Source: Spiroplasma attinicola
GTDB taxonomy: Bacteria > Bacillota_I > Bacilli_A > Mycoplasmatales > VBWQ01
Reading direction: 5' to 3'
DNA: 64,000 bases
Assembly: GCF_023509825.1 (NCBI RefSeq)
Contig: NZ_JAKQXY010000001.1
Coordinates: forward strand, 1 to 64,000
Both the position numbers and the translations under genes were made by a program. Below are positions 34,441-48,904 of this stretch, piece after piece. The notes beneath the pieces are model-generated. The model saw only the letters and a program-made list of their open reading frames with translations. It made no database searches and was not told the origin of the DNA. Numbering within the stretch: position 1 is the stretch's first letter; each line of letters opens with the position of its first letter.

Positions 34441-34994
34441 TTATTGCTGTAAGTTTTCAAGTTTTAACTCAAGGTTTTTAATTAAGTTATTAGCAGTTTC
34501 AAATAATAGTTCGCAATCTTTTTGAATTAAAATTAATTGTGCTTTAACTATTGCTAGTTCATTTGTTATTTGCGTAATTTCTTGTTGTAAACTAATAATT
34601 CTTTGGTTTTGCCGTTCAATAACATATTCCCGAAAAATAGCATTAGTATTTTTTATTGCTAAATATTGTTTGGTATTACTATCTATCTTTTAATTAATAT
34701 CTTTAACAATTTCTAATTCAACAGTGCTATTTTTCGTATAAAAAATTTTCTTTAAGATATGTTACTTGATATAACTTGATAATTGATTGTTTTTCTAAAA
34801 AGTTAGTTTTAATAAGACTATCACCTAAATCTGGCCGATAACGATTATTATTATAAGATGTTAAGGGTATACTATAAACAGTTCCATTAATAATATCTGT
34901 AATAATAAAAGGGCAAAAAAATTTTTCTTTAGTTTTATAAGGTACAATATAATTAATAATTCAAACATCCTGGATTGTATATTCTTTTTTTCAT
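34441..34994 (-). pseudogene. Decayed gene, possibly PemK/MazF-like, with coiled-coil tail
   Basis: A good start (AAAGGAAAATAATATG) is followed by seven A, which put the ATG out of frame with the rest. Reading MKKEYTIQDVWIINY requires one A fewer. The next segment (FFCPFIITDII ... VYSIPLTSYNNN ... LYQVTYLKENF) has the feel of PemK/MazF-type toxins. A second shift near 34745 and an in-frame TAA at 34690 follow before a coiled-coil tail (ERQNQRIISLQQEITQITNE). At least three lesions show it is dead. The family assignment is weak. Confidence 0.45.
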
Positions 34995-35020: not shown

Positions 35021-35040
35021 GAGATAGTTTATACTATCTC
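35021..35040 (-). terminator. Hairpin with U-run
   Basis: GAGATAGT and ACTATCTC form an 8-bp stem with a 4-nt loop and an A-run on the 5' side, so U-rich on the - strand. It could terminate the DUF262 operon. Confidence 0.6.
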
Positions 35041-35148: not shown

Positions 35149-36003
35149 TTATTCTTCAATTAACTCAACAAACTTTTTGTTTTTTACAACATGATTAACT
35201 TTTTTACTATGCTTCGTATAAAATCTTTTATTTGATAAATTAGAATTTTTCATTTCATTAATTTTAGCAAGAACATGATATGTTTTAAGATTTTCTGAAT
35301 TAAATAACCTCTTTCTGCTATTTCCACAGTTAATTAAGTCATATATTTCCTTTGATACTGATATATGAAATTCTATATCCTTTTCAAGTATTTCAATTTT
35401 GTAATCTTTTGGTTCATGATTTAATTGACAATCATAATTTGATTCGCATTTTTTTCCAAGAATGCAAGAATAAAATTTCCTATTTAATATACCTGTTAAA
35501 AGAACAGCATTATTTTCTATACTATGACTTTTTTCATATCATTCTTTACAATAATCAGGATTAATAAAACTAGTTTCTTTTAGAAAACCTAATTCAGGAT
35601 CATTTTTTAATAAATCAAATAATTCAGCTAGTTTTAAGTAAGGTCCTGTGTATTTACTAGCAATCAGTTTATTAAACTCTTCTTCATCTATATTTACAGT
35701 TCTTTTTGGTAATCCTTTAATTAAAAAATTAAGAGTTCGATTTTTAATTAATTTTTGTTTTAGTCTAGCTAAATCATGAAAAGGACAATTATTTAAATGA
35801 TCACTTTTTCTTTTTGACCTTAAATAAACAAGATTATTTTTACTCAAAATAGCAGAAACTAATATTGCTTGACAATCTAAATGATAGCCACATTTTAAAT
35901 TATTTTTTGATAAATAATCTTTAATCTTTTCTCCATCAGAAAATAACTGATTAATTTCTTCAATACTTATAAATTTATTATTTAGGTAAAACTCGCTATG
36001 CAT
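35149..36003 (-). CDS. Cys/His-rich protein, CoiA-like zinc pattern
   Basis: The 284-residue protein has C38 and C44, then H69-x3-C73-x2-H76 in HLNNCPFHD, a spacing reminiscent of the zinc-binding N-terminus of CoiA-like predicted nucleases. A second cluster (SCILGKKC ... DCQLNH) lies past residue 170. There is no signal peptide or membrane helix; the C-terminus is Lys-rich. It starts 32 bases after the DUF262 gene on the same strand and is probably in one operon with it. Zinc binding and nuclease activity are inferred. The gene is intact among decayed neighbours. Confidence 0.65.
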
Positions 36004-36035
36004 TTTGAACTCCTGTAATTCTTAACATTCATTAG

Positions 36036-37229
36036 TTAAATTATTTTTAAATCAAAATTTGGATTTTGTGTTAAAAAGTCTATTAAATAGTTAATTTTTT
36101 CAAACTTATTCTTAATTTCTGTTTTGTTATGAGTTGTTTTTGATAATAATCAGGATTCTTTTACTGCCTCTAGCATGGTGTCTTTGTCGTGACTTTTAAT
36201 TTCTTCTAATTTTGTTGCTAATTTTTGTATTTTTTGACTAGCATCTTTAGAATTTCAGTATCCAGCAACTGTTGTGATTTTTTTAATTAATTTCGCTTTA
36301 TTATCTAAAGATAAATTTAAAAAATCATCATTATCATTGAATAAATAAGATAATAATAATATTTTAAAACCCAACACATTCAAAAGTCCATCATTATTTT
36401 TATTAATATTTTCTAATGTTGAATTATTTAGATCCAATCTAATTTTTTGAATAACATTATTAAACTCTTCATTATTCTCTAAATCTTCTAATTTTATTTT
36501 ACTAGTTAATTTAATAATTTCTTTATCAGGTTGACCTATTCTAGTTTTATCAAGAACTATACCTGTAAAAACAGTAAAATGTTTAACAAACCCTCTTCTT
36601 ATATCATTAAAATTAATAACTTCACAAAACTTTGTAATGTCGCCACTATCTAAATAATTATGAATAAAAACATTTGGAATTGAATGCAAAATTTCTCCGG
36701 CTTTTAATTTTTCTTGATTTTGTAACACTCTAAAATAATCTCTAATGTATTGTTCATCTTCACTATATACTAAAGTAATATTTAAAGTATAATCTAGTAT
36801 TCTTTTTTGCAAAAAATCAGGTAAATCCTTAAAGTATGCTTTTTTAAATTTAGATTCTAAAAGTTTTGAAGCTTTAGAATCACTGTTAGCAGCCACTCTT
36901 ATTGTATTTCCTATTAACTTATTTTTTACTATGCTTAATAGAGTTTCATTATCTAGTTCAAATTCATTTTTAATGAAACTTTCTATCGTACTAATTCTTT
37001 GTTGACCATCAATAATCTGTTCCTGTGGTAAACCATCTTTAAATGTACTTCAAATAATAATTGTTCCTATGGGCATATCTAAAAAAATACTTCTAATTAA
37101 ATCTCTTTTAATACTTTTTTCGATTCAAACTATTTTTCTTTGATATTTGTCATTAACAACTATAATTCCAGCTTTTTTTTCATGTAATATTGTTCCCAAA
37201 GTTTTACTTGTTGGTTTTTGGTAATTCAT
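36036..37229 (-). CDS. DUF262 domain protein
   Basis: The 397-residue protein carries the DUF262 hallmark IIDGQQRIST near residue 75, preceded by IIVVNDKYQRKIVW and DMPIGTIIIW, as in the N-terminal part of GmrS and other ParB-like NTP-binding defence proteins. No C-terminal DUF1524 HNH motif was seen, so a nuclease would have to come in trans. The start ATG 37229 has AAAGGAG. It is the first gene of a two-gene operon in an island of plasmid and transposon remnants. Role in defence is inference from family and setting. Confidence 0.8.
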
Positions 37230-37256
37230 TATTTTCTCCTTTTTCAAAATATATAA

Positions 37257-37297: not shown

Positions 37298-37482
37298 ACA
37301 TATTTTTAAAAATAAGTCAACAATTAACGCAATTTAAATTAATAAAAATATCTAAAAACTTTAAATTATCTACTTCAAAATTAAAATAACTAATGGATGT
37401 TAAAAATTATAGGAGCAATTAATAACTACAAATCTTTGGTCTTATTTTGTCATAAAGTAATTTGTTCTTGATAGTTAATTTT

Positions 37483-38513
37483 TTACTGATTATCTTTAAC
37501 TAAAGAGAATAAGAAATGATAATGCTGAATGTTATCTAAAGTATTTAATAATGACTGTAGTAATAACATACGTTCTTCATGAGTAAAATCCATAGCAAGG
37601 ATATTTTAAAACTTGTTCCTTTTGTTGTTGCAAATTATCATAAATTCCTTTATTAACAAGATTTTGATTTCGCAATTTTAAAGTTTCCAAGTTCATTAAA
37701 ACTCTTTGTTCTTGGTGTCATTGTTTAAAGTTTTTGTTACTAACACCAGTTTTTTGCTTTAGGTTTATATTTCTCAATTGTTTCATCAATATTGTCTTTT
37801 GATCATTATCAAAAAGATTTTTGTTGATTACTTAAATCTCTTTTATTATCAAATAACTTTGTGTGCTGTATTTTTGACTTTGAGTATAAAGAAAATGAAT
37901 AAAAATGAATATGAATATTTCTTTCATCCAAGTGAACAACAGCACCAATAATCCCAGAATCATTTCCTAATTGTGATTTTTGCCAAATAACTTCTTCATT
38001 AATAACTTTATTAGCTCATTGATTAAGTTTATCTTAATCAAAAATTTCTTTTAAATAATAGCCTTCGTTTTTAATGTTAAAATGTAACGCCAAGTCATCA
38101 TTAGGGGGTTTCTTCTTTAACTTTCCCAATACTAGCAATCCCTCATTCTTGGAATAAGATTGGACTATAAGTTTTAACAGTTTCAACTAATCAAGGTGTT
38201 TTTAGATGTTTCTTTTCAAATCCAATTAATCAAGGATTATTGTTATGTTCTTTTTGCAAAGTATTGTACATCAAATTTAATTTTATTAAAACTTCTTTAC
38301 GATTATAATGATTTATATAATCAAACATTTTTTGCTCATTGTTAAAAACAAAATAAAGGTTACTTGAACTTTTTGTTGTATCAACGCCAATACCATTTAC
38401 TTTGATGTAACCGAAATCCATGAATAATTGTTTTATTAGTTACAGCATTTCTTGTACCAGCATATTTGACATACCTTAAAATTGTTGTTCGGGCTATAAA
38501 ATATTGATCACAT
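37483..38513 (-). pseudogene. Decayed plasmid mobilisation relaxase (Pre/Mob type)
   Basis: Pieces in different frames read in order: ARTTILRYVKYAGTRNAV, GYIKVNGIGVDTTKSSSNLY, FDYINHYNRKEVLIKL, then NEEVIWQKSQLGNDSG and IGAVVHLDERNIHIHFYSF. The last contains the H-x-D-E ... H-I-H metal motif of Pre/Mob relaxases. Several frameshifts and stops separate the pieces, and the C-terminal part ends near 37483. Relaxases nick plasmid DNA at oriT; this one cannot be made. It marks an integrated plasmid. Confidence 0.6.
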
Positions 38514-47766: not shown

Positions 47767-48174
47767 ATGACAATTTTTATTGCAATTATTGGATATTTAG
47801 CAGGTTTTTTTGGAGTAATTGCTTTTATTCCTCAAACAATTAAAACTATTAAAACAAAAAATACTAAAGAAATTTCTTTAAAAGCTTATATTATTTATAA
47901 TTTAGCTAATTTTTTATTTTTATTATTAGCAATTCTTTCGATTGTTTTACCAATTATGCATCCAGAAAATGCTGCAATAAGTCAAATCATTATTTGAAGT
48001 ATTACAATAATTCTTCCGTATACTGTTACTATGATTGGTGTTTCTTGTATTATTTTCATTAAAGTTCAAAATATTCGTAAATTTGGTGAATATGCTAATA
48101 AAAGTAAAAAACAAATTAATCAAATTGAACTAGAATTAAACCAAGAAATTGAGGAAATAAATAATGTGATTTAA
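47767..48174 (+). CDS. PQ-loop (SemiSWEET-like) membrane protein 1
   Basis: The 135-residue protein has three hydrophobic helices, and in the first the PQ motif FIPQTIKTIKTKNTKEIS. This is the SemiSWEET-type half transporter; two copies pair in the membrane and carry small sugars in known cases. A Lys/Glu-rich tail follows. The stop overlaps the next start, showing tight coupling. Substrate is unknown. Confidence 0.8.
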
Positions 48175-48607
48175 TAGCATCTTAAATAATCAAGAAAAAA
48201 TCAATTCAAGTCTCTTTTGATTAGTAATGGGAATTGGTTTCTTTGGTACAGGCATTGCTATTATTGCTTTTTTACCACAATCACTAAAAACTCTTAAAAG
48301 TAAAAAAACTAATGGTGTATCAGTGCTTACTTTTAGTTTTTATACTTTAGCTAATAGTCTCTGATTTATTTGAGGAATTTTAGATTTAGTTTTTAATGGT
48401 AATCAAGATTTAATTACAATTTTAAAAGATTCAATTGTTATTGCTGCTAATGTCCCTTGTGCTTTATGAGCAGCAATTATTCTAGCAATTAAAATTCATA
48501 ATATTTATTATTATGGTGAAGATTGTAAAAAATGAAAAGGCAAAAAAAATCAAAATGATATTTCTCAATCAAACATTTATGAGATCATGAAAGATAGAAA
48601 GGATTAA
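48164..48607 (+). CDS. PQ-loop (SemiSWEET-like) membrane protein 2
   Basis: The 147-residue protein has the PQ motif FLPQSLKTLKSKKTNGVS and three membrane helices, with a Lys/Asn-rich tail. It starts 11 bases inside the end of the first copy. Sequence differs enough from the neighbours to suggest it works as a distinct subunit, possibly forming a heteromer. Confidence 0.8.
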
Positions 48608-48613
48608 TTTAAT

Positions 48614-48904
48614 ATGCAAATAGCAATTTATATTTTAAGTGGCATTGGTTGTTTATTAACAGCAAGTATTTTAATTCCACAAATTGTGAAAGTTATTAAA
48701 ACAAATAGTGCCAAAGACATATCAACAATTATGATTACGATTAATATTTCAAGTTGTATTTTTTGAATTGTGGCAACTAGTATGCAAATTGCAACTGGAT
48801 TTAATGAATTGCAACCAGCACTAATTGTTGTTAATTCAATTAGTTTAACTTGTGCTGTTATTCTATTAACATTAAAATTATTACATAATAAGAAAGGAAA
48901 ATAG
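48614..48904 (+). CDS. PQ-loop (SemiSWEET-like) membrane protein 3
   Basis: The 96-residue protein has ILIPQIVKVIKTNSAKDIS and three membrane helices, the most compact of the three, close to the minimal SemiSWEET length. It begins six bases after the previous stop, with AAAGGA upstream. It ends the three-gene row. Confidence 0.8.

What the first reader, a model, noticed from the sequence alone, without database searches (positions are those of the whole stretch)
35149..37229. DUF262 protein paired with a Cys/His-rich CoiA-like protein: candidate two-gene defence system
Both genes are intact in an island of decayed plasmid and transposon DNA. DUF262 has the DGQQR motif but no DUF1524 nuclease domain; the partner has two Cys/His clusters with a C-H-C-x2-H spacing like CoiA-type predicted nucleases. 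The two-gene operon could split sensing and cutting between proteins in a way not described to my knowledge.
Basis: partly seen in the sequence, partly recalled or inferred. Interest (0 to 1): 0.75.

Follow-up and report, generated by a model that had tools for sequence, protein, structure and literature searches.

The report
DUF262 gene with orphan cysteine-rich partner
In a Spiroplasma-like bacterium, a piece of old plasmid DNA carries two intact neighbouring genes, one related to known anti-virus switch proteins (DUF262) and one found nowhere else we could search; they probably form a small defence module of a known general design, but the pairing is not conserved and the partner's activity is unknown.

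Summary
The two ORFs are real, intact (genetic code 4) and arranged like an operon on the minus strand: DUF262 (36036-37229, 397 aa), then a Cys-rich 284-aa protein (35149-36003). They lie in a decayed-plasmid insertion; a sister genome has only 94 bp between the flanking genes. The DUF262 protein keeps YQR, DGQQR and FRxxQNQE, lacks DUF1524, folds most like BrxU/ParB, and matches the Menshen NsnA profile over its whole length. The CoiA reading of the partner is not supported: no Pfam, NCBIfam, PADLOC or PHROG hit, a profile score against 17 CoiA relatives within shuffles, no CoiA Cys spacing, and no usable structure. No homologue of the partner was found in about 1,100 scored Bacilli/Bacillota genomes (overlapping sets), GTDB, IMG/VR, plasmids or phages. 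None of the 22 nearest DUF262 relatives has a similar neighbour: 17 have no evident partner and 5 are followed by a DUF3800 gene. More distant short DUF262 genes are followed by HEPN or AAA/DUF3696 genes. Short DUF262 plus separate effector is therefore a known modular design. Most likely this is one more such module with an orphan effector.

The parts
36036..37229 (-). DUF262 (GmrS/NsnA-like) protein, 397 aa, no DUF1524; motifs YQR 29-31, IIDGQQR 72-78, YFRVLQNQExLxAGE 165-179
   Evidence: Pfam PF03235 E=8e-20 and PADLOC NsnA E=4e-20 over residues 8-385; alignment A2 with 18 relatives; AF2 model pLDDT 81 with best PDB match BrxU, E=2e-3, prob 0.98
35149..36003 (-). Cys-rich orphan protein, 284 aa, candidate effector; clusters C38-x2-H-x2-C44 / H69-x3-C73-x2-H76 and C180-x5-C-x5-C-x3-H196
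   Evidence: Intact code-4 ORF; no family hit; no homologue found; 2.8% Cys against 0.8% in neighbouring proteins; AF2 unusable, pLDDT 32
36010..36014 (-). Shine-Dalgarno AGGAG of the partner gene
   Evidence: Read from sequence
37236..37240 (-). Shine-Dalgarno AGGAG of the DUF262 gene
   Evidence: Read from sequence
35021..35040 (-). Intrinsic-terminator-like hairpin GAGATAGT-ATAA-ACTATCTC followed by TTTTTT, downstream of the partner
37808..38110 (-). Remnant of a Pre/Mob plasmid relaxase with internal stops and an HLDERNIHIHF motif (approximate ends)
   Evidence: PF01076 Mob_Pre E=2e-7 on the read-through peptide

Best explanation
The locus is a plasmid-derived two-gene defence-type module of the known 'short DUF262 plus separate effector' design. 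The DUF262 protein is an NTP-dependent switch and sensor with a ParB/Srx-type fold and a DGQQR nucleotide site, followed by a helical domain. The Cys-rich partner, probably metal-binding, is the effector or an accessory DNA/RNA-binding subunit. Shown here: both ORFs are intact and arranged as an operon, the DUF262 motifs are kept, no DUF1524 is present, it fits the NsnA profile over its full length, and the setting is mobile-element DNA. Inferred by analogy: NTP hydrolysis, sensing of foreign or modified DNA, and partner activation. Not shown: any nuclease activity or metal binding of the partner, or any defence phenotype.
For: DUF262 identity and full-length NsnA match; BrxU as best PDB fold match, then ParB/Noc; motif conservation over 19 sequences. 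The gene arrangement (DUF262 first, 32-bp gap, own SD, terminator after the pair) parallels relatives where DUF262 is followed after 10-28 bp by DUF3800 in 5 of 22 loci and more distant short DUF262 genes followed within a few bases by HEPN or AAA/DUF3696 genes. Both genes share the same atypical codon usage, 0.31-0.32 per codon against 0.47-0.52 for other genes compared, consistent with arrival together. Published precedents: Menshen, Dazbog and PD-T4-2 carry DUF262 without DUF1524, and losing the DUF262 gene abolished resistance for Menshen and Dazbog (PMC10952713).
Against: No second locus with this pair exists in anything searched, so functional coupling rests on gene order and composition alone. 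17 of the 22 nearest DUF262 relatives have no evident partner, so DUF262 may work alone. The partner has no recognisable domain or fold.
Confidence: 0.45

Rival explanations
1. DUF262 acts alone as a single-gene defence or DNA-processing protein (NTPase, possibly nuclease), and the Cys-rich gene is unrelated plasmid cargo or a regulator that happens to share the transcript.
For: 17 of the 22 closest full-length relatives have no evident partner, including in Tenericutes, Clostridia and Flavobacteria; many single-domain GmrS/GmrD homologues are known to be unpaired (PMC4619093).
Against: A 32-bp gap, a terminator after the pair, matching codon usage and joint survival of these two genes in an otherwise decayed island.
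Confidence: 0.3
2. The pair serves plasmid maintenance, transfer or toxin-antitoxin function rather than phage defence; the Cys-rich protein would be the antitoxin, regulator or toxin.
For: Position beside a Mob_Pre relaxase remnant and a weak PemK-like remnant; survival of an intact pair among pseudogenes is what addiction modules show (inference).
Against: DUF262 proteins are chiefly known from defence systems (PMC10952713); no known TA family matches.
Confidence: 0.2
3. The partner is a CoiA-type or PD-(D/E)xK nuclease, giving a split DUF262/CoiA restriction system.
For: A post hoc D-x10-E-F-H stretch at residues 198-211 has the spacing of the CoiA D...EFQ motif; 1% of shuffles contain such a pattern. 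Cys/His clusters are present.
Against: A profile of 17 CoiA relatives scores the partner within shuffled sequences; the CoiA Cys spacing and RAD motif are absent; no Pfam CoiA hit; the D-x10-E stretch follows the second Cys cluster directly, without the intervening region CoiA has.
Confidence: 0.05

Closest known systems
Menshen (NsnA DUF262 component)
   Same: Full-length NsnA profile match (E=4e-20); DUF262 without DUF1524, encoded with a separate effector gene.
   Different: Menshen pairs DUF262 with a predicted OLD/TOPRIM nuclease (PMC10952713); no such gene is near here.
GmrSD / BrxU / SspE type IV restriction enzymes
   Same: DUF262 with the DGQQR NTP-binding motif; BrxU is the best solved-structure match.
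   Different: No DUF1524/HNH nuclease domain in either protein by Pfam.
DUF262 + HEPN (RiboL-PSP / MAE_28990) operons
   Same: Short DUF262 (about 360-380 aa) followed immediately by an effector-like gene; seen here in L105 and L112; ParB-nuclease/HEPN operons reported in PMC3710099.
   Different: The partner shows no similarity to the HEPN proteins.
DUF262 + DUF3800 pairs in gut Clostridia (L032, L035, L036, L038, L040)
   Same: Same DUF262 subfamily, same gene order and similar gap size.
   Different: The partner here is not DUF3800.
PtuXYZ, Dazbog, PD-T4-2
   Same: DUF262 lacking DUF1524, encoded with separate genes in reported or putative defence loci.
   Different: No PADLOC model hits the partner; gene content differs for PtuXYZ; Dazbog and PD-T4-2 partners were not compared directly.
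CoiA competence protein
   Same: Both have Cys/His clusters.
   Different: Spacing differs and there is no profile similarity above shuffles.

Membership tests
DUF262 / GmrSD_N (PF03235) | Profile match above gathering score and (I/V)DGQQR motif | tested here: met
   72.2 bits against cut-off 33.2; IIDGQQR 72-78
GmrSD type IV restriction system | DUF1524/HNH domain in the same or the adjacent protein | tested here: not met
   No GmrSD_C hit in either protein at E<=10; a further profile test had only two training sequences and was uninformative
Menshen | NsnA-like DUF262 protein | tested here: met
   PDLC03877 E=4.3e-20, profile 50-381 of 385
Menshen | OLD-type ATPase/TOPRIM partner gene | tested here: not met
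   The only intact adjacent gene is the orphan; no such domain by Pfam or PADLOC
CoiA | CoiA nuclease profile match | tested here: not met
   No Pfam hit; custom profile within shuffles
CoiA | N-terminal C-x2-C-x(12-14)-HF(A/S)H cluster | tested here: not met
   Partner reads C-x5-C-x24-H-x3-C-x2-H
DUF1173 | Profile match; C-x-C...KRMP...H-x3-4-C motif | tested here: not met
   Profile of 7 members scores within shuffles; only a loose H-x3-C-P resemblance
DUF262 + DUF3800 or HEPN pair | Partner homologous to DUF3800 or RiboL-PSP-HEPN | tested here: not met
   Scores within 500 shuffles
Anti-phage defence system | Protection against phage or plasmid | not testable with these tools
   Needs experiment

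The most novel reading that the evidence does not exclude
The orphan is a new metal-binding effector family, perhaps a CCCH-type RNA-binding protein or a new nuclease, controlled by an NsnA-like DUF262 switch and confined to poorly sampled mollicute plasmids: a two-gene immune module of known logic with an undescribed effector.
Probability: 0.25. Interest if true: 0.5.

Novelty: new variant of a known kind. Interest (0 to 1): 0.3.

Why it matters
If the two genes work together, DUF262 switches would be shown to swap effectors even more freely than known, and a host with a very small genome would have a candidate immune module. The wider result, that one DUF262 subfamily stands alone or is followed by DUF3800, and that distant short DUF262 genes precede HEPN or ATPase genes, gives a simple way to look for new effectors next to short DUF262 genes.

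Tried and rejected
CoiA and DUF1173 profiles against the partner: within shuffles. HEPN and DUF3800 proteins against the partner: within shuffles. DUF1524 test with a locally built profile: only two training sequences, uninformative. PDB sequence search: only chance hits at E>=0.2. AF2 of the partner as a single sequence: pLDDT 32, not used for a fold search. Weak 14-16-bit hits of the partner in G232, G360, G057, G561, G582 and G598: short, with no shared Cys clusters in the alignments inspected, treated as chance. GTDB genome contigs and IMG/VR scans with the partner: no relatives. A 42-bp inverted repeat flanking the DUF262 gene as a transposon end: borderline against shuffles, no further genome copies, no evident target duplication.

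Full report
Observation. Read with genetic code 4, the minus strand holds DUF262 at 36036-37229 (397 aa) and a second ORF at 35149-36003 (284 aa), 32 bp apart. Each start is preceded by AGGAG at 6 nt. A terminator-like hairpin follows the second gene at 35040-35021; four such sites were found in the region against 0.8 expected in shuffles. The partner frame is open for 284 codons while its other frames carry 10-34 stops. All tryptophans in both genes are TGA, so both are adapted to a mollicute-type code. Both show the same weaker fit to the local codon usage (0.31-0.32 per codon against 0.47-0.52 for the other genes compared), which suggests arrival as a unit.

Setting. Upstream lies a broken Pre/Mob relaxase (PF01076 E=2e-7, with internal stops) and downstream a weak PemK-like remnant (E=0.016, below cut-off). 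The stretch lies between rpsU and a thiN-type gene. In sister genome G001 these two genes are 94 bp apart; in G002 there are 3.3 kb with two different ORFs; in G004 and G007 a DUF871 gene lies in this region, as in the window. No DUF262 or partner homologue was found in the other eight genomes of the family.

DUF262. PF03235 matches residues 12-183 (E=8e-20). PADLOC NsnA, taken as the Menshen DUF262 component, matches residues 8-385 (E=4e-20). Against 18 relatives the invariant positions include YQR 29-31, DGQQR 74-78 and much of FR..QNQE.L.AGE 166-179. The AF2 model (pLDDT 81) finds BrxU first in the PDB (E=2e-3, prob 0.98) and then ParB/Noc, and DUF262 proteins among viral models. TM-scores over the full length are low, so the match supports the N-terminal fold and not the arrangement of the whole protein.

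Partner. No Pfam, PADLOC or PHROG family matches, and the single NCBIfam hit is a lipoprotein at 11 bits against a cut-off of 115. No homologue was found in 320 Mycoplasmatales genomes, 395 Bacilli genomes, 392 Bacillota genomes (the sets overlap), GTDB contigs, IMG/VR, plasmids or phages. The GTDB and IMG/VR scans reach close relatives only. It has 8 Cys (2.8% against 0.8% in neighbouring proteins), in C38/H41/C44...H69/C73/H76 and C180-x5-C-x5-C-x3-H196. The second fits the general CCCH zinc-finger spacing (own knowledge) and occurs in 0.5% of composition-preserving shuffles; cluster density as such occurs in 13%. The CoiA profile built from the fetched relatives scores the partner within shuffles, and the CoiA Cys spacing is different. 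DUF1173, DUF3800 and HEPN were tested in similar ways with the same result. Metal binding is therefore an inference from sequence only.

Relatives and pairing. A GTDB scan gave 22 relatives with E below 1e-20. Their neighbours were examined by script: 5 (L032, L035, L036, L038, L040) have a gene of the DUF3800 type 10-28 bp downstream (Pfam E 1e-9 to 7e-20 for the three tested), and the others have no evident partner. No neighbour resembles the orphan, by sequence with all filters off or by combined Cys pattern. More distant short DUF262 genes on plasmids are followed directly by RiboL-PSP-HEPN genes (L105, L112) or AAA/DUF3696 genes (L106, L110).

Literature. DUF262 without DUF1524 is already reported in Menshen, Dazbog and PD-T4-2 (PMC10952713) and in the putative PtuXYZ operon (PMC11980606). 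HEPN operons with ParB-type nucleases were described in 2013 (PMC3710099). GmrS and GmrD as separate proteins are described in PMC4619093. No paper in the library names DUF262 together with CoiA, DUF3800 or Spiroplasma.

Conclusion. The most likely reading is a plasmid-borne module of the known short-DUF262-plus-effector design with an orphan effector (0.45). Solo DUF262 action (0.3) and a plasmid maintenance role (0.2) remain open. A CoiA-type partner is unlikely (0.05).

Noticed in passing
L032:6109-6858, L035:6110-6859, L036:1987-2802, L038:1561-2376, L040:3392-4201: NsnA-like DUF262 genes of gut Clostridia are followed after 10-28 bp by DUF3800-type genes, a family that PADLOC also lists as a retron effector; no paper in the library names the two together.
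   Followed up: partly
window 36010-36051 and 37374-37415: A 42-bp inverted repeat (35/42) brackets the DUF262 gene and includes the partner's Shine-Dalgarno; best shuffles reach 34/42, and no other copies of its core exist in the genome.
   Followed up: partly
window 34750-34990: Decayed stretch with weak similarity to PemK/MazF-type toxin (E=0.016, below cut-off) just downstream of the operon.
   Followed up: partly
L101:8259-11146: The same rpsU-thiN site in sister genome G002 holds two other ORFs (381 and 479 aa), so the site looks like an insertion hotspot.
   Followed up: partly
window 47767-48904: Three small tandem membrane proteins that look like PQ-loop/SemiSWEET proteins by eye.
   Followed up: no
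L044:2479-6107: Two different DUF262-type genes in a row, after a gene that may be a DNA methylase (by eye).
   Followed up: no
L030:4001-4492: Unannotated DUF262-like sequence on Psychrobacter plasmid pYP14d, shortly after a DpnII-type restriction-modification pair.
   Followed up: no
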